From Myxococcales bacterium (GTDB lineage: Bacteria; Myxococcota_A; UBA9042), in contig SHZF01000009.1 of assembly GCA_009692425.1 (NCBI GenBank), forward strand, positions 1 through 48,213: a DNA stretch of 48,213 nt, read 5' to 3'. The stretch's first letter is position 1, and the number at the start of each line of letters is the position of its first letter. Below are positions 1-28,093 of the stretch, piece after piece. The position numbers were made by a program, and so were the translations under genes. A model generated the notes under the pieces. It worked only from the letters and a program-made list of their open reading frames with translations. It was not told where the DNA came from and searched no databases.

Positions 1-33
1 CAGCCTGAGCGCAATGAGCCGTGGGCGCGCTGA
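1..33 (+). CDS. 3' end of a gene running in from the left, possibly rpmC (ribosomal protein L29)
   Basis: The first 30 bases read as an open frame ending in TGA at 31-33 (last residues NEPWAR). In spc-type clusters rpmC lies directly before rpsQ, so this could be the L29 tail, but ten residues are too few to identify it. The call rests on position only. Confidence 0.3.
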   Translation, partial: QPERNEPWAR

Positions 34-63
34 CCGAAGCACGCCAGGCTCCAGGAGACTGAG

Positions 64-495
64 ATGAGCGACGAAAACCAGACAGCCGAAGATACGATGC
101 CCGCGCCGCCGGCGGCCCCGCCGATTCCCGGGACCCCGGCATCTGCAGAAGCTGTGGCGACATCCGAAGCTTCGACCGAACTCGGGCCGCAGGACGCCAC
201 GCCCCCCGACATGACGTTCACGGGCGACGCCGCCGATGCGGCCAGCCGCCACCGCCGGACGATGACCGGCACAGTCATTTCCACGAAGATGGACAAGACG
301 GCGGTCGTCTCGGTGCAGCGCGTCTTCCTGCACCCGAAGTACCGCAAATACGTGCGGCGCCGGAAGCACTACATGGCCCACGACGAGCACGGCGCCTGCC
401 AACTTGGCGACTTCGTGCTGATCGAGGAGTGCCGGCCGATGTCGAAGCACAAGCACTGGCGCTTCAAGCAGATGGTCCGCCGCAAGGCAGGCTGA
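64..495 (+). CDS. rpsQ: 30S ribosomal protein S17 with long N-terminal extension
   Basis: S17 binds 16S rRNA early in 30S assembly. The S17 core starts near residue 66 (MTGTVISTKMDKTAVVSV) and ends with the basic tail of the family. The protein has 143 residues against about 85 normally; the first 65 or so are an Ala/Pro/Glu/Thr-rich segment that looks disordered. The ATG at 64 has a good AGGAG site at 53-57, so the extension is probably translated. An internal ATG near residue 66 would give a standard-length protein. First intact gene of the cluster. Confidence 0.95.
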   Translation: MSDENQTAEDTMPAPPAAPPIPGTPASAEAVATSEASTELGPQDATPPDMTFTGDAADAASRHRRTMTGTVISTKMDKTAVVSVQRVFLHPKYRKYVRRRKHYMAHDEHGACQLGDFVLIEECRPMSKHKHWRFKQMVRRKAG

Positions 496-576
496 ACGAA
501 TCGCCGCAACGGCCAGAAGGCTGTGCGCTAGACAGTGACGCGCCCGGGTTCGCGCCCGGCAAGTGAGGGGAGCGCC

Positions 577-945
577 ATGATACAGCAGGAGACTTACCTG
601 ACCGTCGCCGACAATTCGGGGGCCAAGCAGCTGCGCTGCATTAAGGTGCTGGGCGGTTCGAAGCGCAAGTACGCGTCGTTGGGCGACATCATCGTCTGTT
701 CGGTGCGCGAGGCGCTGCCCAAGTCCAAGGTCAAGAAGGGCGACGTGGTCAAGGCCGTGATCGTCCGCACGACGAAGGAAGTGGGCCGCGAGGACGGGTC
801 GTACATCAAGTTCGACGGCAACGCGGCGGTCGTCATCAACAACCAGAAGGAGCCGGTGGGTACCCGCATCTTCGGGCCGGTCGCGCGCGAACTGCGGGCG
901 AAGCGGTTCATGAAGATTGTGTCGCTGGCGCCCGAGGTCCTGTAG
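577..945 (+). CDS. rplN: 50S ribosomal protein L14
   Basis: L14 sits at the subunit interface. Starting at the ATG at 577 the protein is 122 residues, the canonical length, beginning [25 protein letters not shown] ribosome-binding site lies about 6 bases upstream. An upstream in-frame start at 535 would add 14 untypical residues and is not used. A 15-base tandem duplication starts inside the last codons and runs past the stop. Confidence 0.98.
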
Positions 946-959
946 CCCGAGGTCCCGTC
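930..959 (+). repeat. 15-bp tandem duplication across the rplN stop codon
   Basis: Bases 930-944 and 945-959 match at 13 of 15 positions. The first copy encodes the C-terminus of L14 and part of its stop; the second is in the gap before rplX. One of several such duplications in the cluster. Confidence 0.8.
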
Positions 960-990
960 ACCGTACGGGTCGAACGCGAGAGGGAAGGTC

Positions 991-1317
991 ATGAAAAAGA
1001 TTCGCAAAGGCGACCTCGTCGTGGTGCTGGCCGGCAAGGACCGCACCAAGCAGGGCAAGATCCTGCGCGTCGTCGATGGCGACAAGGTGATCGTGGAGAA
1101 GCTCAATGTGGTGAAGCGCCACATCAAGCCGCGAGCCGGCAAGCAGGGCGGCATCGAGGAGCGGGAAGCGCCGCTGCCGATGTCGAAGGTCGCGCTCGTC
1201 AGCCCGACGACCGGCAAAGGCGTGCGCGTCGGCTTCCAGTTCGTCGATGACGGCACGGGTGGCCAGAAGAAGGTGCGCGTCGTCCACAAGACGGGAGAAG
1301 TGCTCGACCCGGTGTGA
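991..1317 (+). CDS. rplX: 50S ribosomal protein L24
   Basis: L24 initiates 50S assembly by binding the 5' region of 23S rRNA. The N-terminus MKKIRKGDLVVVLAGKDRTK is the KOW motif, followed by GKILRV and the VEKLNVVKRHIKP strand typical of L24. Length 108 residues, close to the usual 103. An AGGGAAGG site precedes the ATG. Confidence 0.97.
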   Translation: MKKIRKGDLVVVLAGKDRTKQGKILRVVDGDKVIVEKLNVVKRHIKPRAGKQGGIEEREAPLPMSKVALVSPTTGKGVRVGFQFVDDGTGGQKKVRVVHKTGEVLDPV

Positions 1318-1382
1318 ACCGGTGACGGCGAGCCAGCGCGACGAAGAGCCCACGCAACAGCGAGCGGGCAAAAGGAACGAAG

Positions 1383-1925
1383 ATGAAGCCGCGGATGCGC
1401 GAAAAATACGAAAGCCAAGTCGCCAAGGCGCTGCAGTCGGAGTTCTCCTACAAGAATCCCATGCAGGTGCCGCGCGTCCAGAAGGTTGTGATCAACTTCG
1501 GGCTGGGGGAAGCGACCCAGAACCCGAAAGTCATCGACAAGGCGGTCGAACAGATGACGGCGTTGTCCGGGCAGAAGCCCGTCGTGACGCGGGCCCGCAA
1601 GTCGATCGCGAACTTCAAGCTGCGCGAGAACGTGCCCATCGGCGTCAAGGTGACCCTGCGTGCGCAGCGCATGTGGGAGTTCCTCGACCGCCTGATTTCG
1701 GCCGCGCTGCCCCGGGTGCGCGACTTCCGCGGCGTCAACGCCAAGGGCTTCGATGGCCGGGGCAACTTCACGCTCGGCATCAAAGAGCAGATCATCTTCC
1801 CGGAAATCAACTACGACACGGTCGACAAAGTCCGCGGCATGAACGTGACGGTGTGCACGTCGGCCAAGACCGATGCCGAGGCCCGTGCCCTGCTCGCCCA
1901 CCTGGGCATGCCGTTCCGCAAGTAG
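1383..1925 (+). CDS. rplE: 50S ribosomal protein L5
   Basis: L5 binds 5S rRNA and contacts P-site tRNA. The 180 residues match the family length of 179. Recognisable blocks are [14 protein letters not shown], the TGQKPV-like [21 protein letters not shown], and the C-terminal half with [30 protein letters not shown] sequence precedes the ATG. Confidence 0.98.
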
Positions 1926-1943
1926 CGCAAAAGGATCATAGAG

Positions 1944-2129
1944 ATGGCGACGACATCGCAAATCCAGAAGTCGATCAAAAAGCCGAAGTTCGCGGTGCGG
2001 CACCGCAACCGCTGCAAGGTGTGCGGCCGGCCGCGCGGCTACCTGCGCAAGTTCGCGCTGTGCCGCATCTGCCTGCGCATGCTCGCCGTCCGCGGCGAAC
2101 TGCCCGGTGTGACGAAGGCCTCCTGGTAG
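1944..2129 (+). CDS. rpsN: 30S ribosomal protein S14, zinc-binding (C+) type
   Basis: A 61-residue S14 of the short type. Two CxxC pairs (RCKVCGRP and LCRIC) form the zinc ribbon of the C+ paralogue; the long zinc-free form lacks them. It ends with LPGVTKASW, typical of the family. It acts in 30S head assembly. A ribosome-binding AGGATC sits before the ATG. Confidence 0.97.
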
Positions 2130-2202
2130 GGGCGTTTTCCCGCATCGAATTCAAGGTCCCGACGACCGGCGCGCCACGTGTGCGCCCCAAGGAAAGGCAG
2201 CC

Positions 2203-2601
2203 ATGCCGACGACAGACCCCATTGCCGACTTCCTCACCCGCGTGCGCAACGCGCTGATGGCCCGCCACGCGCAGGTCAAGGTGCCGGCGTCGAACATCAT
2301 CAAGTCGATTGCGAACATCCTGCACGAAGAGGGCTACGTCGACGACGTGACCGAAGCGCAGGATACGCCCCAGGGCTCGCTGCAGATCAAGCTGCGCTAC
2401 TGTGCCGATCGCAGTGCTGCCATCACCGGGATCCGCCGCGAGTCGCGTCCTGGCCAGCGCCGCTACGTGCCGGTAACCGAGATTCCGCGGGTCAAAAACG
2501 GCATGGGCATCGCGATCCTGTCGACGTCGAACGGCGTGATGACGGGTGCGCGGGCTCGGCAGTCGAACGTCGGCGGCGAACTGATCTGCACGGTGTGGTA
2601 G
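2203..2601 (+). CDS. rpsH: 30S ribosomal protein S8
   Basis: S8 binds helix 21 of 16S rRNA and in E. coli represses the spc operon. The 132-residue protein starts MPTTDPIADFLTRVRNA and ends with VGGELICTVW, the conserved S8 C-terminus; the SNGVMTGARARQ segment is the RNA-binding loop. An AAGGAAAGG site precedes the ATG. Confidence 0.98.
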   Translation: MPTTDPIADFLTRVRNALMARHAQVKVPASNIIKSIANILHEEGYVDDVTEAQDTPQGSLQIKLRYCADRSAAITGIRRESRPGQRRYVPVTEIPRVKNGMGIAILSTSNGVMTGARARQSNVGGELICTVW

Positions 2602-2650
2602 GCGCCGAGGCCGGGATTGCCGGTGACCGCGCCCGAACGAGGGAATTTCC

Positions 2651-3235
2651 ATGGATATGAACGCAGCAAAAACCGGCAACGTGGTGTCACGCGTGGGCAA
2701 GGCGCCCGTCGCTCTGCCGGCCAAGGTGTCGGTTGCCGTCACGGGCAAGCTCGTCACCGTCAAGGGTCCGCTCGGCACGCTCGAGCGCATCTTCGAGGGG
2801 GTCACGTTCGAGCAGAAGGACGGCAACCTGCTGGTCCATCCGACCGAATCGACGCGCACCGGCAAGGCCATGCACGGCCTCGGCCGCAACCTCGTGCGCA
2901 ACATGGTCCAGGGCGTCACGGTCGGCTACAAGCGCGAACTTGACGTCATCGGCGTCGGCTTTCGCGTCGAGGCGGTCGGGCAGGCGCTGAAGTTCAGCAT
3001 TGGCTTTTCGCATCCGGTGCTGTTCCCGCTGCCTGCGGCCGTGACGTGCAAGATCGAGAAGCTGACGCACCTCGAGCTGTCGTCGATCGACAAGGAACTG
3101 CTGGGCCAGGTCGCCGCGAACATCCGTGGCCTGCGCAAGCCGGAGCCGTACAAGGGCAAGGGCATCCGCTACACGGCCGAGAAGGTGCGCCAGAAGGCGG
3201 GCAAGTCGGGCGGCAAGGGCGCCAAGAAGAAGTAG
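2651..3235 (+). CDS. rplF: 50S ribosomal protein L6
   Basis: L6 lies near the factor-binding site of the 50S. The usual SRVGKxP start appears at residues 13-18 (SRVGKAPVALPAKVSV), so there is a 12-residue N-terminal extension and a Lys/Gly-rich C-terminal tail; total 194 residues against about 178. The motif EPYKGKGIRY near the end is diagnostic. Two ATG codons (2651 and 2657) are both placed behind GAGGGAA; the first is taken. Confidence 0.97.
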   Translation: MDMNAAKTGNVVSRVGKAPVALPAKVSVAVTGKLVTVKGPLGTLERIFEGVTFEQKDGNLLVHPTESTRTGKAMHGLGRNLVRNMVQGVTVGYKRELDVIGVGFRVEAVGQALKFSIGFSHPVLFPLPAAVTCKIEKLTHLELSSIDKELLGQVAANIRGLRKPEPYKGKGIRYTAEKVRQKAGKSGGKGAKKK

Positions 3236-3308
3236 CCGACCCGCGCTTCGATCCGGCACCCCATCGCCGGGCTTTCGGAACGCGGTTGTGCGAGCAGCGT
3301 ACGTCGAT

Positions 3309-3337
3309 TTCTGGGCGTCAGGACCTGACATCCAGAA
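3309..3337 (+). promoter_or_regulatory. stem-loop in the leader of rplR
   Basis: The arms TTCTGG (3309-3314) and CCAGAA (3332-3337) enclose a second TCAG/CTGA stem with loop GAC, separated by a 3x3 internal loop. It ends about 21 bases before the rplR ATG, just upstream of the GGGAGAGAGG ribosome-binding site. A role in translational control or transcript processing is inferred from position only. Confidence 0.45.
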
Positions 3338-3358
3338 GAACTGGGAGAGAGGCAGACC

Positions 3359-3838
3359 ATGCTGGGCAAGATCAAGATTTCGCCGCGCGAGCACCGCAAA
3401 AACCGCCTGCGCTTCACGATTCGGGGCACCGCCGAGCGGCCGCGCATGAACGTGTTCCGCTCCGCCAAGCACATCTATGTGCAGATCATCGACGACGATG
3501 CGGGCGCCACGCTCGCGGCCGCCTCGACGATTGAGTTGGAGTTGCGCCAGTTCGAAGGCAACAAGACCGCCGCTGCCGAAGCCGTCGGTCGCCTCGCTGC
3601 GGAGCGTGCGCTGGCCAAGGGCATCAAGAAGCTCGTGTTCGACCGCGCCGGCTACATCTACACCGGGCGCGTCGCGGCCGTGTCGAAGCGCGCGCACGAA
3701 CTCGGCCTGCTGACGCGCGCGGGAGTTGGCGCGGCCGAGGCCGGAACCGACGCCGGAACCGAAGCGGACGAAGTGGCAGACGCGAATGCCGACGCCGGTG
3801 GCCCCGACGCTGCCGCCGCGACCGAAACTGCGGGTTGA
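3359..3838 (+). CDS. rplR: 50S ribosomal protein L18 with acidic C-terminal tail
   Basis: L18 binds 5S rRNA. The core (residues 1-118) has [33 protein letters not shown] and the [12 protein letters not shown] block. The normal end is near residue 118; another 41 residues rich in Ala, Asp, Glu and Gly follow (159 in total). This acidic tail is unusual for an rRNA-binding protein and resembles the Asp/Ala linkers of lipoproteins elsewhere in the window. The 123-base gap before the gene holds a stem-loop. Confidence 0.95.
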
Positions 3839-3935
3839 TCCACCGCTTCAACTAGAGCGACCGTAGCAACAGCAGAAACCGGGGCATTGGGCGCACCCAC
3901 AAGAACCGCCCGAGCCCACGCAGGAGACGACCGTC

Positions 3936-4490
3936 ATGGCAGCAGATCACACGAGGTCCCAGGGCAATCGCGACAACCGCGGACCCCGCCGCGACCGCCC
4001 CGAGGCCGAGCGCGACGAGATGGAGGCCGCGACGATCGCGATCAATCGCACGGCCAAGGTCGTCAAGGGCGGCCGGCGCTTCTCGTTCAGCGCGCTGGTC
4101 GTGGTGGGCGATGGCAAGGGCTCCGTCGGGGTCGGCATGGGCAAGGCGTCCGAAGTGCCGGAGGCCGTGCGCAAGGCGACCGAGCAGGCCAAGAAGGGGA
4201 TGTTCCAGGTGCCCGTGAAGAAAGGCACGATCCCCCACGACGTCATCGGCCACTACGGCGCAGGCGAAGTGCTGCTGCGGCCGGCTTCGCGCGGTACCGG
4301 TGTCATCGCCGGTGGTGCCGTGCGCGCCGTGCTCGAGCAGGCCGGTGTCCACGACGTTGTCACCAAGTGCCTCGGCAGCAACAACCCGCACAATGTCGTG
4401 CGCGCCACCGTCGATGCGCTCAAGCAACTGCGCACCCAGGAGCAGGTCAGCCTGCGCCGGGGCAAGCCGGTCGAGCACCTGCGCGCCTAA
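3936..4490 (+). CDS. rpsE: 30S ribosomal protein S5
   Basis: S5 is a 30S protein involved in decoding accuracy and mRNA helicase activity. The 184-residue protein has a hydrophilic charged N-terminal extension of about 30 residues before the S5 double-stranded RNA-binding domain ([20 protein letters not shown]), then the C-terminal domain with [29 protein letters not shown] site precedes the ATG. The 97 bases upstream hold no gene. Confidence 0.97.
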
Positions 4491-4524
4491 CCGCTGCGGC
4501 GCCGCTCGACGAGGCAATGAGCCC

Positions 4525-4553
4525 TTGTCGCGTAGCGTGCTGGTCCCTATACT
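4525..4553 (+). promoter_or_regulatory. sigma70-like promoter before rplO
   Basis: TTGTCG (4525-4530) and TATACT (4548-4553) are separated by exactly 17 bases, a good match to the -35/-10 consensus in an otherwise GC-rich gap. Transcription would start near 4560 and give a leader of about 180 bases before rplO. It sits where rpmD would normally be. Confidence 0.65.
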
Positions 4554-4657
4554 CTTGCGCCCCGCGTTGGGCGTGGGAAGAAGTTCCCGCCCGGTCCGGC
4601 GAGTCCCCGCCTGGCCCAGTACCCGGCCGGCCCAGTCCCGGCCAGGCCCGCGCAGCC

Positions 4658-4714
4658 GCAGATAGACCGCGGAACTGCAGATAGACCGCGGAGCTGCAGA
4701 TAGACCGCGGACCC
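4658..4714 (+). repeat. three tandem 19-bp repeats in the rplO leader
   Basis: Units at 4658-4676, 4677-4695 and 4696-4714 share the sequence GCAGATAGACCGCGGA followed by ACT, GCT or CCC. They lie between the promoter at 4525 and the rplO ribosome-binding site. Each unit contains CCGCGG. No open frame is apparent in the 247-base gap. Confidence 0.9.
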
Positions 4715-4737
4715 GCTGACAGACTTTGGAGTCAAAG

Positions 4738-5205
4738 ATGAACGAGTTGAGCAACCTGCGACCCCCGCGTGGTGCCACGAAGACGCGCAAGCGCCTCGGA
4801 CGTGGCGTCGGCTCCGGCCTCGGCAAGACGTCCGGTCGCGGCCACAAGGGTCAGTTGGCGCGCAAGAGCCCCGACGTCGGCACCGGCTTCGAGGGCGGCC
4901 AGATGCCGATCCAGCGCCGCCTGCCGAAGATCGGCTTCACGAACATCTTCGCGCTCAAGTGGGCGTCGGTGAACGTGGGCGCACTCGCGGTGTTCGAGGC
5001 CGGCTCGCGCATCGACGAGACGACCCTGCGCGCCGCTCGCCTGGTGCGGGGCCGCTTCGACGCCATCAAGGTGCTCGGCGACGGAGAGATCGACCGCGCG
5101 CTCACCATCGTGGCGCACCAGTTCAGCAAGACCGCCGAGGACAAGATCACGGCGGCCGGCGGCACGCTGGACAAACTGCCGAAGCCCAGGTCGACAACCG
5201 CGTAG
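4738..5205 (+). CDS. rplO: 50S ribosomal protein L15
   Basis: L15 is a late 50S assembly protein. The N-terminal Gly/Arg-rich segment is diagnostic: RKRLGRGVGSGLGKTSGRGHKGQ, then FEGGQMPIQRRLPKIGF. The ATG at 4738 follows TTGGAG at 4726-4731 with good spacing; the TTG at 4726 lies in that site and is rejected as a start. 155 residues. First gene after the internal promoter and tandem repeats, with secY downstream. Confidence 0.97.
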   Translation: MNELSNLRPPRGATKTRKRLGRGVGSGLGKTSGRGHKGQLARKSPDVGTGFEGGQMPIQRRLPKIGFTNIFALKWASVNVGALAVFEAGSRIDETTLRAARLVRGRFDAIKVLGDGEIDRALTIVAHQFSKTAEDKITAAGGTLDKLPKPRSTTA

Positions 5206-5217
5206 AGCGCCCGCGCG

Positions 5218-5243
5218 CGTCCCCGTGTCCCGTCCCCGTGCCC
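5218..5243 (+). repeat. 13-bp tandem duplication between rplO and secY
   Basis: CGTCCCCGTGTCC (5218-5230) is followed at once by CGTCCCCGTGCCC (5231-5243), 12 of 13 identical. It is in the 74-base gap before secY. Confidence 0.7.
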
Positions 5244-5279
5244 TCGTAGCGGTCGCGCTGCCACCCGCCGGAGCCCTTC

Positions 5280-6620
5280 GTGTTCAAGGCCCTCGAAAAC
5301 ATCTTCAAGATCCCGGAGCTGACCAAGCGCATCGCCTTCAGCGTCGCGATGCTTGCCGTCTACCGCATCGGCGTGTTCATCACGGTGCCCGGCGTCGATC
5401 GCCAGGTGATGGCCGACTATTTGAACTCGTCGGACGGGGGCGGCGGCCTTGTGGGCATGATCAACCTGTTTTCGGGCGGTGCGCTGGAAAACATCTCGAT
5501 CTTCGCGCTCGGCATCATGCCGTACATCTCTGCCAGCATCATCTTGCAACTTTTGACCGTTGTCGTGCCGACCGTCGAGCGGCTGAACAAGGAAGGCGAG
5601 GCCGGTCGGCGCAAAATCAACCAGTGGACGCGCTACGGCACCGTCCTGCTCTCCTTTGTGCAGGGCATGGGCCTGGCGATCTGGTTGGAGAGCTTGAATC
5701 AGCAGACCGCGGCGGGCGCGGCTGGCGGCGGCATGTCGGGCTGGGGATTCCGCCTGATGTGTGTGCTGTCGCTGACGACCGGGACCGTGTTCATCATGTG
5801 GCTCGGCGAGCAGATCACCGAGCGCGGCATCGGCAACGGCATCTCGCTTATCATCTACGCCGGCATCGTGGCGCAGCTGCCGCAGGCGCTGCAGCAGACG
5901 TGGTCGCTGTTCCAGAACGGGCAGCTCTCGATCCCGGTGCTTGCCGTCATCGGCATGCTGATCGTGGGGGTCATCGGCGCCATCGTCTACTTCGAGCGCG
6001 CCCAGCGCCGCATCCCCGTGCAGTACGCCAAGCGAGTCGTCGGCCGCACGATGGTGCAGGGTGCGGCGTCGTACCTGCCGCTGAAGGTCAACTCGTCGGG
6101 CGTCATTCCGCCCATCTTCGCGTCTTCGATCCTGATGTTCCCGGCAACGCTGTCGAACTTCGTTCCCAACAGCGAGGCAATGGCGGCGGTCGTCAACAGC
6201 CTCAACCCCGGCGGCATGCTCTACAACATCGCGTACGTCGGCTTGATCGTGTTTTTCTGCTACTTCTACACCGCTGTCACGTTCAATGCGGTCGATGTCG
6301 CCGACAACCTGAAGAAGTCCGGTGGGTTCGTGCCCGGTGTCCGTGCTGGCAAGAAAACGGCCGAGTACATCGACACCGTGCTGTCGCGCATCACCTTTGG
6401 CGGCGCGCTCTACATCAGCACCGTATGCGTGTTGCCGACGATGCTTCAGACCAGCATGAACGTGCCCTTCCAATTTGGCGGCACGGCGCTGCTGATCGTG
6501 GTCGGCGTCGCGATCGACACGGCGCAGCAGATCGAGAGTCACCTGATCACGCACAGCTATGAAGGGTTCGGCGGGGGCAAGGGCCCGCGCATTCGCGGTC
6601 GCCGGGCGGTGACCGAATGA
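5280..6620 (+). CDS. secY: preprotein translocase subunit SecY
   Basis: SecY forms the protein-conducting channel of the inner membrane with SecE and SecG. The 446-residue protein starts at GTG 5280 behind a GGAG site and has about ten hydrophobic segments. Family signatures: [24 protein letters not shown] at the first helix, [27 protein letters not shown], and the cytoplasmic loop [20 protein letters not shown]. The stop codon overlaps the adk start (ATGA), implying translational coupling. Confidence 0.98.
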
Positions 6621-7321
6621 GTTCAGGTCCCGCTGGAAACCGCGCGTCGGCAGGGAGTGCGGCGAATCGCATCGTACTTCTCGGTGGACCGGGGGCTGGC
6701 AAGGGGACGGTGGCCAAGGCGCTCATCGATCGTTTCGGCCTGCAGCACCTGTCGACGGGAGACATGTTGCGTGCGGCCGTTGCAGCGGGCACCGAACTCG
6801 GCAAGCTCGCCCAAGGCTTCATGTCCCAAGGCGCGCTCGTGCCCGACGACGTGATGGTGAAGCTCCTTTCCGAGCGCGTCCAGCAGGCCGACTGCCGCCT
6901 GGCCGACGGCACGCCACGGTTCTTGCTCGACGGCTTTCCCCGCACGTTGCCCCAGGCGGCTGCCCTTGATCGAGAGGGGTTGTCGCCCGATCTGGTCGTG
7001 TTTCTCGACGTGCCCGACGAGATCATCGTGCGGCGGTTGGTGGGTCGGCGCACCTGCCCGCAATGCGGCAATCCTCACCACGTCGAATTCGCCCCGCCTG
7101 TGCAAGACGGCCTGTGCGACCGTTGCGGTACGCGTCTCGTGCACCGACCCGACGACACGGAAGGCGCCATCCGCCGGCGCCTTGACGCCTTTCACGCGCA
7201 GACGGGCCCGCTCGTCGAGCGCTATGCCCATGTGCTCGCGCATATCGACGGCAACCAACCGCCCGAGACCGTGCAGAAGTCGGTCTCGACCACGTTGCGC
7301 TCCCATGGCGTGGTCGGCTGA
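6617..7321 (+). CDS. adk: adenylate kinase with zinc-type lid
   Basis: Catalyses ATP + AMP = 2 ADP in the cytoplasm. Walker [10 protein letters not shown] at residues 23-31, the AMP-binding HLSTGDMLR, and FLLDGFPRT are clear. The lid holds CPQCGNPHH and later CDRCGTRL, four cysteines that bind structural zinc in the long-form enzyme. 234 residues; about 16 residues precede the usual start. The ATG overlaps the secY stop. The map gene that often follows is missing. Confidence 0.97.
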
Positions 7322-7424
7322 GCGCACAAAAGACCTCCCGGAATTTCCGAGTCCCCTTTCCCCACGCGGAATCCCGCCCGCGCACCGCAGCGGTACTGGC
7401 CAGATGGAGCCCACAAGGAACTGG

Positions 7425-7643
7425 ATGTCGAAGGACGACGCGATTGAAGTCGAAGGTACGGTGCTCGAACCGCTGCCCAACGCAATGTTCCGGGTGCAGC
7501 TCGAGAACGGCTTGAAGGTGCTGGCCCACGTGTCTGGCAAGATGCGCATGCACTTCATCCGCATCCTGCCGGGAGATCGCGTCAAGGTGGCGCTGAGCCC
7601 CTATGATCTGACACGCGGGCGAATCACCTATCGTGCCAAGTAG
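7425..7643 (+). CDS. infA: translation initiation factor IF-1
   Basis: IF-1 is an OB-fold protein that occupies the 30S A site during initiation. From the ATG at 7425 the protein is 72 residues, the canonical length, starting [20 protein letters not shown] and ending [15 protein letters not shown]. An AAGGA site is 6 bases upstream; the ATG at 7404 would add seven untypical residues and lacks such a site. Confidence 0.97.
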
Positions 7644-7727
7644 CTGACAACGCATCGATCTGGCGATTGTCCAGTGCCGATGCGACCACTTTGCGGCACT
7701 GCCGCCTGCGAAACCGACGATTAGGCC

Positions 7728-7756
7728 TTGGCGAAGGCCGGAAACCTGTGTAGAGT
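7728..7756 (+). promoter_or_regulatory. sigma70-like promoter before rpmJ and the alpha-operon genes
   Basis: TTGGCG (7728-7733), 17 bases, TAGAGT (7751-7756), in the 210-base gap between infA and rpmJ. It is positioned to drive rpmJ-rpsM-rpsK-rpsD-rpoA-rplQ. The leader to the rpmJ ATG would be about 90 bases. Confidence 0.6.
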
Positions 7757-7853
7757 TTCGCCCCCTCCGACGCGCAAGCGCTGGAGCCGAACGCAGCCGC
7801 TTCGACCTCCGCCTCTGGGCGTGGACCCGAAAGAGGCGTGAGGAAGGATAGCC

Positions 7854-7967
7854 ATGAAAGTGCGTGCCTCCGTCAAACCCATCTGCGACCTCTGCCGCGT
7901 GATCAAGCGCGCCGGCGTTGTTCGCGTCATCTGTACGAACCCCAAGCACAAACAGCGTCAGGGCTGA
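7854..7967 (+). CDS. rpmJ: 50S ribosomal protein L36, zinc-binding (C+) type
   Basis: A 37-residue protein starting [20 protein letters not shown]11, C14, C27 and the later His ([11 protein letters not shown]) form the zinc ribbon of C+ L36. An AGGAAGGA site precedes the ATG. It stabilises 23S rRNA in the large subunit. Confidence 0.97.
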
Positions 7968-7969
7968 GC

Positions 7970-8041
7970 CCAGCGCAGCGCACGGTCAAACCCTGCGCAG
8001 CGTACGACCAAGTCCGCCGCCGCGTACGACAAGGAGTCCTC
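7970..8041 (+). repeat. degenerate tandem repeat of about 22-24 bp between rpmJ and rpsM
   Basis: Three related segments built on GCGCAGCGyACGrycAA follow each other: the first two agree at about 13 of 17 core positions and the third keeps CGCGTACGACAAGG. This is the segment where S4-mediated alpha-operon control acts in E. coli; no comparable pseudoknot was recognised. Confidence 0.4.
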
Positions 8042-8422
8042 ATGGCCCGCATCGCAGGTGTCGATCTCCCGCGCAACAAGCGCATCGAGATCGCGTTGCG
8101 CTACATTTATGGCGTCGGCGCGAAAACGGCCGTCGCGGTGTGCAACAAGGCAGGCATTCCGCTCGGCAAGAAGTCCGACGAACTGTCCGAGACCGACATC
8201 GTGCGCATCCGCGATGTGCTGGAAAACCAGTACAAGATCGAGGGCGACCTGCGCCGTCAGATCGCGATGGACATCAAGCGTTTGATGGACCTCGGCTGCT
8301 ATCGCGGCCTGCGCCACCGCAAGGGCCTGCCCTGCCGCGGCCAGCGCACGCATACGAATGCCCGCACCCGCAAGGGTCCGCGCCGCGCGGCGGTCAAGAA
8401 GAAGGAAGTGGGCAAGAAGTAG
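8042..8422 (+). CDS. rpsM: 30S ribosomal protein S13
   Basis: S13 in the 30S head contacts S19, 16S rRNA and the P-site t[29 protein letters not shown] opens the protein, and [27 protein letters not shown] is the conserved basic C-terminal region. 126 residues. An AAGGAGTCC site lies before the ATG. Confidence 0.98.
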
Positions 8423-8485
8423 CCCCCTCAATCGCATGGCTCTCCAGCCGTGCTGCGTCGGTGACGGCGCTTGGACAGGAACGAC

Positions 8486-8902
8486 ATGGCAACGGCACCC
8501 GCCGCAGCAGGCAAGGGCTCGGCCACCGCGCGTGGCAAGAAGCGCGTCAAGAAGAACATCCAGTCTGGCGTCGTGCACGTCAGCTCGACGTTCAACAACA
8601 CGATCGTCACGATCACAGACGTGTCGGGCAACGTGGTCGCGTGGTCGAGTTGTGGTCGGCGCGGCTTCAAAGGCTCGCGCAAGTCGACACCGTTTGCGGC
8701 CCAGATGGCGGCCGAAGATGCGGTGCGGCGGGCGCAGGAACATGGCGTGAAGTCGGTGCATGTGCTCGTCAAGGGCCCCGGCACTGGCCGCGAGGCGGCA
8801 CTGCGTGCGCTGGGCAACGCGGGGCTGCGGATCACGACGATCCGCGACGTGACGCCCATCCCCCACAACGGATGCCGGCCGCCGAAGCGCCGCCGCGTCT
8901 AA
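8486..8902 (+). CDS. rpsK: 30S ribosomal protein S11
   Basis: S11 lies on the platform of the 30S. Conserved blocks: [54 protein letters not shown] and the basic end CRPPKRRRV. 138 residues from the ATG at 8486, preceded by AGGAACG. The last codons are part of a 25-base tandem repeat that continues into the gap. Confidence 0.98.
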
Positions 8903-8960
8903 CAGGCGAGAGCGCCGCCGCGCCGAACTGGCGAGAGCGCCGTCGCGTCCAACTGGCTAG
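8886..8960 (+). repeat. three tandem 25-bp repeats across the rpsK stop codon
   Basis: Units at 8886-8910, 8911-8935 and 8936-8960. The first encodes the last residues of S11 plus its TAA; the next two have lost the TAA and fill most of the gap to rpsD. Mismatches between units are few. Confidence 0.9.
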
Positions 8961-8976
8961 AGAAGGCAACAAAGAC

Positions 8977-9606
8977 ATGGCTCGTTATACCGGACCCGTT
9001 TGCCGCCTGTGCCGCCGCGAAGGGCTCAAGCTCTTCCTCAAGGGCGAGCGCTGCTACACCGACAAGTGCGCCGTTGAAAAGCGCGCGTACATTCCCGGCC
9101 AGCACGGCCAGGCCCGCCACAGCAAGGTGTCGGAGTACGGCAAGCAGTTGCGCGAGAAGCAGAAGGTCAAGCGCATCTATGGCTTGGTCGAGAAGCAGTT
9201 CCGCGGCTACTACGTTCTGGCGGCGCGCAAGGAAGGCGTCACGGGCGAGAACCTGTTGCGCTACCTAGAGCGTCGGCTCGACAACACCGTGTTTCGGCTC
9301 GGGTTCGCCGCCAGCCGTTCGGAAGCGCGCCTGCTCGTGCGCCACCGCCACATCCTGGTCAACGGCCAGCGCACTGACATTCCGTCGCTGCTGGTCAAGG
9401 CGGGCGACGTCGTCGAGATCATCGAGGCGTCGCGTCAGAACGGCCGCGTGCTGGAGTCTCTCGAGGCGGTCGATCGCCGCGGCGTGCCGGCGTGGCTGCA
9501 GTTGGACAAGAAGGGCCTCAAGGGCCTCGTGCAGACCCTGCCGGTCCGCTCGGACATCACGATGCCGATCGAGGAGCACCTGATCGTTGAATTGTATTCG
9601 AAGTAA
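8977..9606 (+). CDS. rpsD: 30S ribosomal protein S4, zinc-finger type
   Basis: S4 nucleates 30S assembly and in E. coli regulates the alpha operon. The N-terminal domain has CRLCRREG and later CYTDKC, the four-cysteine zinc finger of the C+ type. It continues YIPGQHG and the S4 RNA-binding fold ([22 protein letters not shown]), ending LIVELYSK. 209 residues, the usual length. Confidence 0.98.
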
Positions 9607-9632
9607 TCGGGAATTGTACACGAAGTAATCGC
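9589..9632 (+). repeat. 22-bp tandem duplication across the rpsD stop codon
   Basis: 9589-9610 and 9611-9632 match at 19 of 22 positions. The first copy encodes the last residues of S4 and the TAA; the second copy repeats them, including a second TAA, just after the gene. Confidence 0.85.
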
Positions 9633-9689
9633 CAGCCATTGCCGTCGCACACAGCGTGTGAGCGGACGCAGGTTGGCGCAGGAGAGGCC

Positions 9690-10793
9690 ATGCAGCGCAA
9701 TTGGAAGAACCTCATTCGCCCGAAGGCGCTCGAGGTCGTGGAACTCACCGAAACGTACGGCAAGTTCTCGATCGAGCCGCTGGAGCGGGGTTACGGCACC
9801 ACTCTCGGCAACAGCCTGCGCCGGGTGCTGCTCGCGAGCATCCGTGGGGCGGCGATCACGGGAGTGCGCATGGCGGCACTCGGCCGCGTGGTGCGCGAAG
9901 ACGACAACGGCAAGGGCAAGACCCAGCGTCGCATGGTCGAGCAGATGCACACGGCGCTGCATGAGTTCCAGGCGCTGCCCGACGTCGTCGAAGACGTGGC
10001 GGAGATCGTGTTGAACCTCAAAGAGGTCAACCTGCGCATGGAAGGCGAGGGTCCCGAGTACATGGACCTCGTCGCTGAGGCGCCTGCGGGCGGCGCGCCC
10101 CTGCGCGTGACGGCGGGCATGTTGCAGACGCCGTCGTCGATCACCGTGCTGAACACGGACTTGCACCTCATGACGATCGAGCCCGGTGGCCGCGTCGAAA
10201 TGGCGCTGACCGTCAAGGAAGGCATGGGCTACGTGCCGGCGACGCGTGAGGCGGCCGAGGATGCGCCCGTGGACCTGCTGCCGATCGACGCAATCTTCGG
10301 GCCGGTTCGCCGCGTCAACTTCCGGGCCACCAACGCCCGTGTCGAGCAGCGCACCGACTACGACAAGCTGACGATCGAGGTATGGACCAACGGCGCGGTC
10401 GATCCGGAGACGGCCGTCGGTATCGCGGCGAAGATCCTGCGCGAGCAGTTCAAGGTCTTCGTGGCGTTCGAGGACGACGACGACTACGAGGGCGACGACG
10501 GACCGACGGCGATCGCGACCACCGAGCCGATGAACGAGAACCTGTGGAAGACGATCGATTCGCTTGAACTGTCCGTGCGCTCGGCGAACTGTCTGCAGAA
10601 CGCGAACCTGCGTTTCGTCGGTGAACTCGTGCAGAAGACCGAGGCGGAGATGCTGAAGACGAAGAACTTCGGCCGCAAGTCGCTGAAGGAAATCAAGGAC
10701 CTTCTCCAGGAGATGGGCCTCAGCCTCGGTATGTACCTCGACAGCTGGGACCCGGACAGCCCGCCGGAGTCGATGCAGCAGGCCCACAACTAA
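9690..10793 (+). CDS. rpoA: DNA-directed RNA polymerase subunit alpha
   Basis: The alpha dimer scaffolds RNA polymerase assembly and its C-terminal domain binds UP elements and activators. The NTD has [28 protein letters not shown]; the CTD has [43 protein letters not shown]. Length 367 against about 329-340. Much of the excess is an insert of some 25 residues (about 66-90, with [13 protein letters not shown]) before LHEF, and an acidic linker before the CTD. A GGAGAGG site precedes the ATG at 9690. Confidence 0.98.
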
Positions 10794-10848
10794 GGACGCT
10801 CGCAAGAGCTCGCGCAGGCGCTGGCAAGGACTCGGCAAGGAATTCGAC

Positions 10849-11199
10849 ATGCGTCATCTCAAAAGCGGCAACAAACTCAGTCGCGAAACCTCGCACCGGC
10901 GCTCCATGCTGCTGAACCTGTGCAAGTCGCTGATCCAGTATGAGGGGCTCACCACGACCGTCGCCAAGGCGAAGGAACTGCGCGGTTGGGTCGAGCCGAT
11001 GATTACAGCGGCGCGCGAAGACACCGTGCACCGGCGCCGGCTGGCGTTTGCCAAACTGCGGGACAATGGCCTTGTTGCCAAGCTGTTCACCGAGCTGGGA
11101 CCGCGCTTCGCATCGCGGCCGGGTGGCTATACGCGCACGCTGAAGCTCGGGCCGCGCCAGGGCGACGCCGCGTCGATGGCGCGCATCGAGTTCGTGTAG
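10849..11199 (+). CDS. rplQ: 50S ribosomal protein L17
   Basis: L17 is at the polypeptide exit side of the 50[30 protein letters not shown] is the diagnostic N-terminus; the C-terminus [18 protein letters not shown] matches the family. 116 residues. Last gene of the ribosomal cluster; the gap before it contains degenerate 11-base repeats with the core CGCAAG/GGCAAGG. Confidence 0.98.
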
Positions 11200-11220
11200 G
11201 CGATCGAGTTCGTGTAGGCG
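11185..11220 (+). repeat. perfect 18-bp tandem duplication across the rplQ stop codon
   Basis: ATCGAGTTCGTGTAGGCG occurs at 11185-11202 and again at 11203-11220 without a mismatch. The first copy encodes the last residues IEFV and TAG; the second duplicates them downstream. Confidence 0.95.
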
Positions 11221-11251
11221 ACCGCCGCCGCCCGTCCAGCCGCGTCCGGTC

Positions 11252-12928
11252 GTGAGCGCCACCGGCTCGCCCCGTCGATCGGGGGTTGTTGCAGTGGAAA
11301 CGGCAGCCCTGCGCAGTCCCTACTGGGCCGTGAGCATCGGCGCGCTGACGGGCGGGTTGCTCGCTCTCGCGTACCCCGGCTTCAATTTGTGGCCGCTCGC
11401 ATTCGTCGGCCTGGTGCCCCTGATCGCATGGATCGTGCGCGAGCGGCCGACGCCGCGGCACGCCCTGCTGGCTGGATGGGTGGCGGGCCTGGTGCTGCAC
11501 GCCGTCACGTTCCGTTGTCTGGCATTCACGGTGCGCGAGATGAGCGGCTTGCCGGACCCGGCCGGCGCGGCGGTCGTGGTGCTGTTCGCGGCGGCGCACG
11601 GGCTGCGCGAAGGCCTGTTCGCGCTGGCGGTCCGCGCCGTGCTGCCCGCCCGGCCGGCGCTCACCACGACGGCGGCGCTTGGGCAGGCCGCTGGCATCGC
11701 GGCGCTCTGGGTGGCGGCGGAGTACGCGCTGCCGGCGCTGTTCGAGTGGCACCTCGGCAACGCGCTGTGGGCGGCGCCGGCATGGATTCAACCAGCTGAC
11801 TTGATTGGAATCTGTGGCGTCAGCGGGCTGTGCGCGTGGACAGCGGCGCTGCTGGCCTTGCAGCGGGCACCCGTGCTGAAGGCCGGGCCTGGCCCGGGCG
11901 GCCTGCGCATCGTGCTCGCCGTGACCGTGCTGGCGTGGGGCGCGTATGGATTCTGGCGGCTCGCCGCGATCGACGCCGAGCCGAGCCGCTCCGTGTGGCG
12001 GGCGGCGCTGGTCCAGGCCGACGCGACGCTGGACGAGAAGCGTGCCGATGAATCGAGGCGCCGCGTGCCGATGTTGGAGCGTGCCGAAGCGATGACCCGC
12101 GAACTGGACCTGACGCGGACCGACCTCGTCATCTGGCCAGAAGGCGCGCTGCCGTTTTTCTGGGTACCCGATGCCGTCGCCGGGCCCGACGTGCTGCGCG
12201 AGCGCGGCCAGCCGACGCGGGCACCCGCGGTGTTGTTGGACCAGAAAACGCGGGTGCTCGGCCTAGTGCGCCACATCGGGCGACCGTTGTTGACCGGTTC
12301 GTTGCGCCAGCGCGATCGCCTGTGGCACCTGCCGACCCACAATTCTGCCCTGCTGGTGCATCCGGATGGCACCGTCCAGACCTACGACAAGCGCATCCTG
12401 CTGGCGTTCGGCGAGTACCTTCCGGGGGCCGAGTGGTTTCCGGCGTTGGCGGGCACGATCCCCGGCATTTCGACCTTCGACCGGGGCGTGGCATCCGGGC
12501 GCTTCGACGTCGCGGGGGCCCGGATTTTCGTGAACATTTGTTACGAGGCGCTGTTCCCCGCGTTCATGCGCCGGGAGGCGGGCGATGCCGACGTGCTGGT
12601 CAACTTGACCAACGACATCTGGTTCGGTACCGGTGCGGCGCCCGAACTGCACCTGATGGTCCAGCAGGCCCGCGCCGTCGAACTGCGCCGACCCCTGCTG
12701 CGCTCGACCAGCACGGGAATCACCGCCCACATCGACGCAGGCGGCGTGCTGCGGGCGCGCACGAAGCTGCACGAACGCCGCACCTTGCGCGCGGACGTGT
12801 CGCTGCGCGACCTCGACAGCCCCTATCGCCGCTGGGGCGACATCCCTGTGCAGGTGCTGACGGCTGGAGCACTGCTTTGGCTGGCCCGGCACGTCTGGCG
12901 CTCGCGCACCGCCGCCGTGAAAGCGTAG
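11252..12928 (+). CDS. lnt: apolipoprotein N-acyltransferase
   Basis: Lnt adds the third acyl chain to the N-terminal cysteine of lipoproteins in the inner membrane. About seven hydrophobic segments (residues 20-235) precede a periplasmic nitrilase-like domain. The catalytic triad is visible: E in WPEGALP, K in TYDKRILLAFGEYLP, C in NICYEALFP. A last hydrophobic segment ends the protein. 558 residues; GTG start at 11252. The window encodes at least five predicted lipoproteins that would be substrates. Confidence 0.93.
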   Translation: MSATGSPRRSGVVAVETAALRSPYWAVSIGALTGGLLALAYPGFNLWPLAFVGLVPLIAWIVRERPTPRHALLAGWVAGLVLHAVTFRCLAFTVREMSGLPDPAGAAVVVLFAAAHGLREGLFALAVRAVLPARPALTTTAALGQAAGIAALWVAAEYALPALFEWHLGNALWAAPAWIQPADLIGICGVSGLCAWTAALLALQRAPVLKAGPGPGGLRIVLAVTVLAWGAYGFWRLAAIDAEPSRSVWRAALVQADATLDEKRADESRRRVPMLERAEAMTRELDLTRTDLVIWPEGALPFFWVPDAVAGPDVLRERGQPTRAPAVLLDQKTRVLGLVRHIGRPLLTGSLRQRDRLWHLPTHNSALLVHPDGTVQTYDKRILLAFGEYLPGAEWFPALAGTIPGISTFDRGVASGRFDVAGARIFVNICYEALFPAFMRREAGDADVLVNLTNDIWFGTGAAPELHLMVQQARAVELRRPLLRSTSTGITAHIDAGGVLRARTKLHERRTLRADVSLRDLDSPYRRWGDIPVQVLTAGALLWLARHVWRSRTAAVKA

Positions 12929-13014: not shown

Positions 13015-14178
13015 ATGACCCGCCCGCCCAAGAACCCGAAGCCCGCCCCCGCTGGGGAAGATGACGCCGCCGACGCAGCGCCGCTCCCCGGCGAACGCCT
13101 GCAGAAAGTGATCGCCCGCACCGGTCGCGCGTCGCGCCGCGCGGTCGAGGAACTGATTCGCGAGGGCCGCGTCGAAGTGAACGGCAAGACGGTGACCGAC
13201 ATGGGCCGGCGCGTGAACCTCGTCGACGACATCGTGCGAGTGGACGGCGAGCGCGTGCGCCTGCCAAATCGGCGCGTCGTCGTGCTGCTGAACAAGCCGA
13301 CCGGCTGCCTGTGTGCCGCTTCGGACCCGGAGAAGCGGCGGCTCGTGTACGCGTATGTGCCGAAGGGCGAGGGGCTTCGCACGATCGGGCGCCTCGACTA
13401 CAACACTGAGGGCGTGTTGCTGCTGACGAACGACGGCGACCTGGCGGAGCGGCTTGGCCATGCGCGCTACAGCGTGCAGCGCATCTACGACGCACGGGTG
13501 CGCGGGGTGCCGACTGCGGAAACGATCGCGACGATCGTGCGTGGCGTGCGGCTCGAAGACGGACCCGCGCGGGCCGAGCGCGCCGAAGTCGTCAAGGCGA
13601 CCGACAACAACGCCTGGGTGCGCCTCGAATTGACCGAGGGGCGCAATCGCGAGGTGCGGCGCTTGATGGAGCGCGTGGGTCACCCCGTCGTGCGCCTGCG
13701 CCGTGTTGCGTTTGCGGGCCTGACGGCGGCGGGGCTCAAGGTCGGGCAGTGGCGCACGCTTGACGACGGCGAGGTCGAGCAGTTGGCGGCGCGCGGCCAC
13801 GTCGGCTCGTTCACGTTGCCGCCGGACCCGCGGCGCAAGGCGCCTTCCCGCCCGGTACGGACGCTGCCCGCACCCGGTCGACCGGAGAAGCCGGGCCATG
13901 TGAAGGCGCGCAGCCCACGGCCAACCGGCACAGCTCCGCCGCGGGAACGCCCCGCAAGGGGTGCGAGCCGTCCTGCCAAGGGTGCGAGCCGTCCGGCCAA
14001 GGGTGCCAGCCGTCCTGCCAAGGGAGCCAGCCGTCCGGCGCAGGGTGCCAGCCGTCCGGCCAAGGGAGCCAGCCGTCCGGCGCAAGGTTCGAGCCGCCCT
14101 TCGGGTGGCCCGAGCCGCCCCGCGCGGGGTGGGTCCCGCAGCGGGCCGGGCCCGTCGCCGCGCGGAGGTCGCCGGTGA
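13015..14178 (+). CDS. rluB: RluB/RsuA-family rRNA pseudouridine synthase with heptad-repeat tail
   Basis: Converts a specific rRNA uridine to pseudouridine. An S4-like RNA-binding domain (ERLQKVIARTGRASRRAVEELI) is followed by the catalytic domain, with the active-site Asp in IGRLDYNTEGVLLLTNDG and the EGRNREVRRLMERVGHPVVRLRR block. Residues about 313-387 are about nine Gly-Ala-Ser-Arg-Pro-Ala-Lys type heptads, a basic low-complexity tail not needed for the fold. RluB rather than RsuA or RluE is by resemblance only. The stop overlaps the next GTG. Confidence 0.9.
   Translation: MTRPPKNPKPAPAGEDDAADAAPLPGERLQKVIARTGRASRRAVEELIREGRVEVNGKTVTDMGRRVNLVDDIVRVDGERVRLPNRRVVVLLNKPTGCLCAASDPEKRRLVYAYVPKGEGLRTIGRLDYNTEGVLLLTNDGDLAERLGHARYSVQRIYDARVRGVPTAETIATIVRGVRLEDGPARAERAEVVKATDNNAWVRLELTEGRNREVRRLMERVGHPVVRLRRVAFAGLTAAGLKVGQWRTLDDGEVEQLAARGHVGSFTLPPDPRRKAPSRPVRTLPAPGRPEKPGHVKARSPRPTGTAPPRERPARGASRPAKGASRPAKGASRPAKGASRPAQGASRPAKGASRPAQGSSRPSGGPSRPARGGSRSGPGPSPRGGRR
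13950..14140 (+). repeat. 21-bp coding tandem repeat in the rluB tail
   Basis: A 21-base unit encoding GASRPAK/GASRPAQ is repeated about nine times, decaying toward the 3' end (GSSRPSG, GPSRPAR). Copies differ mostly at third positions, which suggests expansion under protein-level constraint. Confidence 0.85.
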
Positions 14179-28010: not shown

Positions 28011-28093
28011 GCCGGAGTGGTGAAATGGTAGACGCGGCGGACTCAAAATCCGCTGGGCTTACGCCCATGAGGGTTCAAGTCCCTCCTCCGGCA
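28011..28093 (+). tRNA. tRNA-Leu (anticodon CAA)
   Basis: Acceptor stem GCCGGAG pairs with CTCCGGC, discriminator A at 28093. The anticodon stem GCGGA/TCCGC closes a CTCAAAA loop, giving anticodon CAA for UUG. The long variable arm (TGGGCTTACGCCCA) is that of a class II tRNA, and GGGTTCAAGTCCC is the T arm. The 3' CCA is not encoded. Confidence 0.95.

What the first reader, a model, noticed from the sequence alone, without database searches (positions are those of the whole stretch)
930..11220. Recurrent tandem duplications at gene ends across the ribosomal-protein cluster
Short tandem repeats lie in or across the intercistronic junctions: rplN (2x15), rpsE-rplO (3x19), rplO-secY (2x13), rpmJ-rpsM (about 3x22, degenerate), rpsK (3x25), rpsD (2x22), rpoA-rplQ (about 11-base, degenerate) and rplQ (2x18, perfect). 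At rplN, rpsK, rpsD and rplQ the first unit includes the last codons and the stop, so the gap downstream is made of copies of the gene's own 3' end. They are at different stages of decay. This looks like a recurring mutational process that lengthens spacers in a highly expressed operon; I know of no description of it.
Basis: partly seen in the sequence, partly recalled or inferred. Interest (0 to 1): 0.75.

Follow-up and report, generated by a model that had tools for sequence, protein, structure and literature searches.

The report
Tandem duplications in ribosomal-gene spacers
Short stretches of DNA have been copied side by side in several gaps between ribosomal-protein genes of this uncultured myxobacterium-like genome; the copies are real, but the same thing happens at a lower rate in other gaps of this genome, so ordinary DNA copying slips tolerated outside genes explain most of it.

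Summary
The repeats are real. Of 19 junctions in the window's ribosomal cluster, 6 carry a tandem array that shuffles almost never match (P<=0.002); rplO-secY and rpoA-rplQ are marginal (about 0.03). Four of the 6 include the gene's stop.

The same test finds arrays at 24 of 409 other junctions sampled in this genome, 18 of 276 cluster junctions of 18 family relatives and 16 of 1093 in 80 outgroup loci. Units show no common motif, differ between genomes, and fold no better than shuffles. Arrays inside called genes have periods divisible by 3 (75 of 75). This fits genome-wide tandem duplication filtered by selection.

A special gene-end process is not shown: outside the discovery cluster 6 of 24 arrays include a stop, against 3.2-3.6 or 7.3-8.0 expected under two random-placement models. 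The cluster's excess (6/19 versus 24/409, P=0.001) is post hoc; a scan of the sample gives P=0.046; 0 of 10 junctions in four other highly expressed loci carry one (small sample). Probably intergenic minisatellites of an ordinary kind.

The parts
930..958 (+). 2 x 15 tandem duplication carrying the last codons and stop of rplN
   Evidence: P=0.002; not reported by TRF at score 30
4648..4724 (+). about 4 x 19 array inside the rpsE-rplO spacer, downstream of a promoter-like site
   Evidence: (TRF score 105), P=0.001
4525..4553 (+). sigma-70-like promoter match in the rpsE-rplO spacer (consensus match only)
   Evidence: 2 sites found in 1-11400, 0.9 expected in shuffles
5218..5243 (+). 2 x 13 repeat, rplO-secY; marginal
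   Evidence: P=0.034, not significant for 19 tests
7969..8030 (+). about 3 x 22 degenerate array, rpmJ-rpsM spacer, begins just after the rpmJ stop
   Evidence: P=0.001
8886..8962 (+). 3 x 25 array carrying the last codons and stop of rpsK
   Evidence: (score 112), P=0.001
9589..9631 (+). 2 x 22 duplication carrying the last codons and stop of rpsD
   Evidence: (score 72), P=0.001
10797..10834 (+). degenerate repeat (best period 22), rpoA-rplQ; marginal
   Evidence: P=0.032
11185..11221 (+). 2 x 18 perfect duplication carrying the last codons and stop of rplQ
   Evidence: (100% matches, score 74), P=0.001

Best explanation
These are independent short tandem duplications (units of about 10 to 35 bases) produced across the whole genome by ordinary copying errors, most simply replication slippage or another short-homology duplication. 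Selection removes most that break a gene, so they survive in spacers, across stop codons (where the protein is unchanged because the first copy keeps the real end) and, inside genes, when the unit is a multiple of three. Each array then decays by point mutation. When the spacer is shorter than or about as long as the unit, as at rpsK (inferred original spacer 24 bases, unit 25), the unit can hardly avoid the stop. Shown: reality of the arrays, arrays elsewhere in the genome, different arrays in relatives, lack of a common motif, the frame filter inside genes. Inferred: slippage as the molecular step, and neutrality.
For: Arrays beyond shuffles at 24 of 409 non-cluster junctions, with 0 of 428 in shuffled junctions. 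141 arrays in an 842-kb sample versus 3, 8 and 7 in three shuffles of it. All 75 arrays wholly inside called genes have periods divisible by 3, against 15 of 30 other arrays. 18 of 276 cluster junctions in 18 relatives carry arrays with other units (by eye), 10 of them at junctions that have none in the window; one includes a stop (L142 rpoA) and one a start (L141 rpoA). Array pairs sharing a 9-mer: 13, against a mean of 28 for random spacer pieces. No folding signal in six arrays: z from -1.24 to +1.55. Stop inclusion outside the cluster: 6 of 24 observed, 7.3-8.0 expected if placed at random in the same inferred original spacers, 3.2-3.6 if placed at random over all tested spacers (P 0.09-0.14). 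0 of 10 junctions in loci around rpoB, rpsC and two elongation-factor genes have an array.
Against: In the discovery cluster 4 of 6 arrays include the stop: P=0.004-0.006 over all spacers, 0.04-0.12 within the same spacers. A first model over 30 arrays, weighted by spacer length and including the cluster, gave 7 observed against 2.1 expected (P=0.002). The cluster rate exceeds the rest of the genome (6/19 versus 24/409, P=0.001; 3.5 versus 0.52 per spacer kb, P=0.0006; scan P=0.046) and the relatives' clusters (3.3 versus 0.64 per kb, P=0.006). An array beside the EF-Tu-like gene (L244) was left out of the junction test because its spacer exceeds 400 bases. In six pairs of relatives 0 of 106 spacer gaps of 10 bases or more looked like tandem copies; these spacers are too diverged for that test to be decisive, but no duplication event was seen directly. 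Units of 8 of 30 arrays, mostly short ones, have near-copies elsewhere in the sample (no chance control). The frame filter may be partly an effect of my gene caller, which needs open frames.
Confidence: 0.75

Rival explanations
1. A duplication process tied to gene 3' ends or to heavy transcription (for example collisions of replication with transcription, or termination-linked breaks) recurrently copies the ends of ribosomal genes and lengthens their spacers.
For: Cluster 6 of 19 versus 24 of 409 elsewhere (P=0.001; per base P=0.0006); 4 of 6 include the stop (P=0.004-0.006); family cluster junctions 18/276 versus outgroup 16/1093 (P=1.7e-5; per base P=0.006).
Against: The cluster was chosen because of the repeats; scan P=0.046 in a sample of about a sixth of the genome. 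No significant stop excess outside it. 0 of 10 junctions in four other highly expressed loci (small, and one array beside an EF-Tu-like gene was outside the test). In relatives, cluster junctions (18/276, 18 genomes) do not differ significantly from other junctions (9/244, 8 genomes; P=0.17), and only 1 of the 18 arrays includes a stop.
Confidence: 0.1
2. The arrays are regulatory: repeated protein- or ribosome-binding sites or leader elements controlling the downstream ribosomal genes.
For: The rpsE-rplO array lies between a promoter-like site and rplO. Direct repeats inside ribosomal-protein operons have been proposed as translational control sites in Beggiatoaceae (PMC4679880; abstract and section 16 read).
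Against: No common motif among the arrays and other units in relatives (by eye); no folding signal; no Rfam match there at gathering scores; promoter-like sites 2 versus 0.9 expected.
Confidence: 0.06
3. Lineage-specific rise in the rate of short tandem duplication in this genome and some relatives (G017, G007), through a change in replication or repair.
For: Arrays per intergenic kb: 0.43 here, 0.81 and 0.54 in G017 and G007, 0 to 0.35 in 14 other genomes; G000 24/409 versus outgroup 9/376 (P=0.02).
Against: The excess is only about 2.5-fold, samples of other genomes are small (63 to 121 kb), and other junctions of the eight relatives do not exceed outgroups (9/244 versus 9/376, P=0.46). MutS family matches in 9 of 9 and Ku in 0 of 9 genomes, so neither explains a difference; other repair genes were not searched.
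Confidence: 0.3
4. Assembly artefact of a metagenome bin.
For: The genome is a 137-contig assembly and no reads can be checked.
Against: In five of the six confirmed arrays the copies differ from each other, and all span at most 77 bases, which reads normally cover (inference).
Confidence: 0.03

Closest known systems
Bacterial intergenic minisatellites / VNTR loci
   Same: Head-to-tail units in spacers, locus-specific; PMC2884548 (passages read) names minisatellites as the smallest kind of variable segment in bacterial genomes.
   Different: Here mostly 2 to 4 imperfect copies, four of six across a stop codon; copy-number variation within a species could not be tested.
Short-homology illegitimate recombination / replication slippage
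   Same: Proposed in PMC2884548 (passage read) for variable segments flanked by repeats mostly under 30 bp.
   Different: The duplication step itself is inferred here, not seen.
TAACTGA direct repeats of Beggiatoaceae (PMC4679880)
   Same: Intergenic direct repeats, some inside ribosomal-protein operons (abstract and section 16 read).
   Different: There one fixed heptamer recurs, mostly just upstream of start codons; here each array has its own unit.

Membership tests
Intergenic minisatellite (tandem repeat locus) | Head-to-tail copies of a unit of roughly 10 bases or more, beyond chance | tested here: met
   6 of 19 junctions, P<=0.002; TRF
Intergenic minisatellite (tandem repeat locus) | Unit specific to the locus, no dispersed family | tested here: met
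   13 array pairs share a 9-mer versus a mean of 28 for random spacer pieces; units of 8 of 30 arrays have near-copies elsewhere, mostly short units, without a chance control
Intergenic minisatellite (tandem repeat locus) | Copy number varies between strains | not testable with these tools
   No genome of the same genus among the 35 relatives returned
Duplication process specific to gene 3' ends | Arrays include stops more often than random placement | tested here: inconclusive
   Outside the cluster 6 of 24, expected 3.2-8.0 depending on the model; in the cluster 4 of 6, P 0.004-0.12
Duplication process of highly expressed operons | Excess in other highly expressed operons | tested here: inconclusive
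   0 of 10 junctions around rpoB, rpsC and two elongation-factor genes; small sample, and one array beside the EF-Tu-like gene (L244) lies in a spacer over 400 bases and was not counted
Dispersed mobile or regulatory repeat (REP, SDR, TAACTGA type) | Common unit at many places | tested here: not met

The most novel reading that the evidence does not exclude
In this lineage a transcription- or termination-linked process preferentially duplicates the 3' ends of ribosomal genes, so that spacers are built from copies of the upstream gene's own tail and then decay beyond recognition.
Probability: 0.08. Interest if true: 0.6.

Novelty: new member of a known kind. Interest (0 to 1): 0.3.

Why it matters
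Where spacers come from in compact genomes is seldom visible. Here fresh-looking, ageing and nearly erased tandem copies can be seen side by side in one operon, including copies of gene tails with their stops. It shows that tandem duplication feeds spacer sequence even in a ribosomal operon, but in a way that ordinary slippage plus selection can explain, and detectable copies cover only part of the spacer length.

Tried and rejected
Close-pair alignment to see single duplication events: 0 of 106 gaps of 10 bases or more were tandem, but the closest pair used is 92.7% identical in rpoA and its spacers no longer align well. Shared motif among arrays: a first null (tiled shuffled units) suggested sharing (13 pairs versus 3.0, 0 of 200 shuffles as high); I judged it unfair because tiled copies hold fewer distinct words, and against real spacer pieces there is less sharing than expected (13 versus 28); two window arrays (7969 and 8886) do share GC-rich 9-mers. 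DNA-repair gene differences: MutS in 9 of 9, Ku in 0 of 9, uninformative. RNA structure and Rfam (only a tRNA at 28011-28093): nothing at the arrays. The Fisher test of stop inclusion, 10/30 in this genome versus 1/34 elsewhere (P=0.002), mixes unlike sets, because this genome's set contains convergent gene pairs with two stops and the other sets do not; I do not rely on it, though it goes against my reading. differ for outgroup stops and starts (0 and 0 versus 1 and 1) because assumed a 94-base spacer after rplQ and a looser edge rule. The outgroup set probably holds one contig twice (L056 and L160, contig length 87837 in both) and several Nannocystis genomes, so its loci are not all independent. 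Non-cluster junctions with spacers under 10 or over 400 bases, cluster junctions over 500, and junctions with N were dropped. Literature: eight searches; in the rows listed (8 to 20 per search, often a small part of the papers found) I saw no account of duplicated gene tails building spacers in bacterial ribosomal operons; only open-licence papers are held.
Full report
What was checked. The window is contig 67 of a 4.94-Mb, 137-contig assembly, 96% complete. The closest named relatives of its rpoA come from uncultured bins (L041, a Myxococcales bin, 81% identity; L042, 71%), so it is a Myxococcota lineage. None of the 35 relatives returned is of the same genus. Ten proteins of the cluster match their Pfam ribosomal or RNA-polymerase families. 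The remaining gene names, including the gene after rplQ, are recognised by eye.

The repeats are real. I then scored each of 19 junctions for its best short-lag self-match and compared it with 1000 dinucleotide shuffles. Six reach P<=0.002: rplN, rpsE-rplO, rpmJ-rpsM, rpsK, rpsD and rplQ. Three lie near 0.03 (rpsQ-rplN, rplO-secY, rpoA-rplQ) and ten lie at 0.077 or above. Four of the six include the gene's stop.

They are not confined to this cluster. The same test gives 24 of 409 other junctions in an 842-kb sample of this genome, and 0 of 428 when each junction is shuffled once. A different detector finds 141 arrays in the sample against 3, 8 and 7 in three shuffles. Inside called genes every array has a period divisible by three (75 of 75), against 15 of 30 arrays that are not wholly inside genes. 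That is the mark of a process that acts everywhere and of selection that keeps what does no harm. My gene caller needs open frames, so the figure is somewhat flattered.

Relatives have arrays of their own. In 18 relatives of the family 18 of 276 cluster junctions carry an array; 8 lie at junctions that also have one in the window, 10 at others, and by eye none has the window's unit. One includes a stop (L142, rpoA) and one a start codon with a Shine-Dalgarno-like stretch (L141, rpoA). In 80 outgroup loci the count is 16 of 1093. The family exceeds the outgroup per junction (P=1.7e-5) and per spacer base (0.64 versus 0.23 per kb, P=0.006). Its spacers are also longer (median 91 versus 24 bases). 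At non-cluster junctions the eight sampled relatives do not exceed the outgroups (9/244 versus 9/376, P=0.46). Array density per intergenic kb is high here (0.43) and in G017 (0.81) and G007 (0.54), and 0 to 0.35 in 14 others, from small samples.

Is the gene end special? A unit of 15 to 25 bases in a spacer of 24 to 80 bases often cannot avoid the stop. If each array is placed at random in its own inferred original spacer, 1.6 to 2.3 stop-including arrays are expected in the cluster (4 seen, P 0.04-0.12) and 7.3 to 8.0 elsewhere (6 seen). If arrays are placed at random over all tested spacers, 0.8-0.9 are expected in the cluster (4 seen, P 0.004-0.006) and 3.2-3.6 elsewhere (6 seen, P 0.09-0.14). 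An earlier, cruder model gave P=0.002 for 7 of 30 with the cluster included. The significant excess thus rests on the cluster in which it was first noticed; a mild preference of up to about twofold remains possible.

Is the ribosomal operon special? Cluster 6/19 against 24/409 gives P=0.001, and 3.5 against 0.52 arrays per spacer kb gives P=0.0006, but the cluster was picked for its repeats. A permutation scan for any 19 consecutive junctions in the sample gives P=0.046, and the sample is a sixth of the genome. Ten junctions in four short loci around rpoB, rpsC and two elongation-factor genes (EF-G-like and EF-Tu-like by length) have none, a small sample; an array beside the EF-Tu-like gene (L244 2160-2237) lies in a spacer too long for the test. 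In relatives, cluster junctions do not differ significantly from others (18/276 versus 9/244, P=0.17), while the window's cluster exceeds theirs per base (3.3 versus 0.64 per kb, P=0.006).

Function? The arrays have no common motif, fold no better than shuffles (z -1.24 to +1.55), match no Rfam family at gathering scores, and relatives have other units. The rpsE-rplO array lies downstream of one promoter-like site, the only hint of a role. A published case of direct repeats within ribosomal operons has one fixed heptamer (PMC4679880, abstract and section 16 read), unlike this.

Conclusion. Most likely ordinary intergenic minisatellite-like duplications, unusually dense in one operon. No direct duplication event could be seen between relatives, so slippage is an inference from form, supported by general knowledge and by PMC2884548 (passages read).

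Noticed in passing
window 4490-4738 and 22 genomes of the family: Ribosomal protein L30 (rpmD, PF00327) has no match in this genome or in the other 21 genomes of its family searched (some incomplete), while 7 of 14 other genomes of the class have it.
   Followed up: partly
window 13959-14087: Six in-frame 21-base repeats near the 3' end of a gene (pseudouridine-synthase-like by eye), giving a repeated Ser-Arg-Pro-Ala-Lys-Gly-Ala-like tail.
   Followed up: no
window 35363-35438: Four nearly identical 18-base repeats inside a called gene.
   Followed up: no
L141 rpsD-rpoA junction; L174 19564-19623: Mirror-image cases: duplications that include the start codon, in L141 with a Shine-Dalgarno-like stretch resembling the gene's own first codons.
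   Followed up: partly
L157 (G017) ribosomal cluster: A relative with five arrays in ribosomal spacers, none across a stop, and the highest intergenic array density of the 17 genomes sampled.
   Followed up: partly
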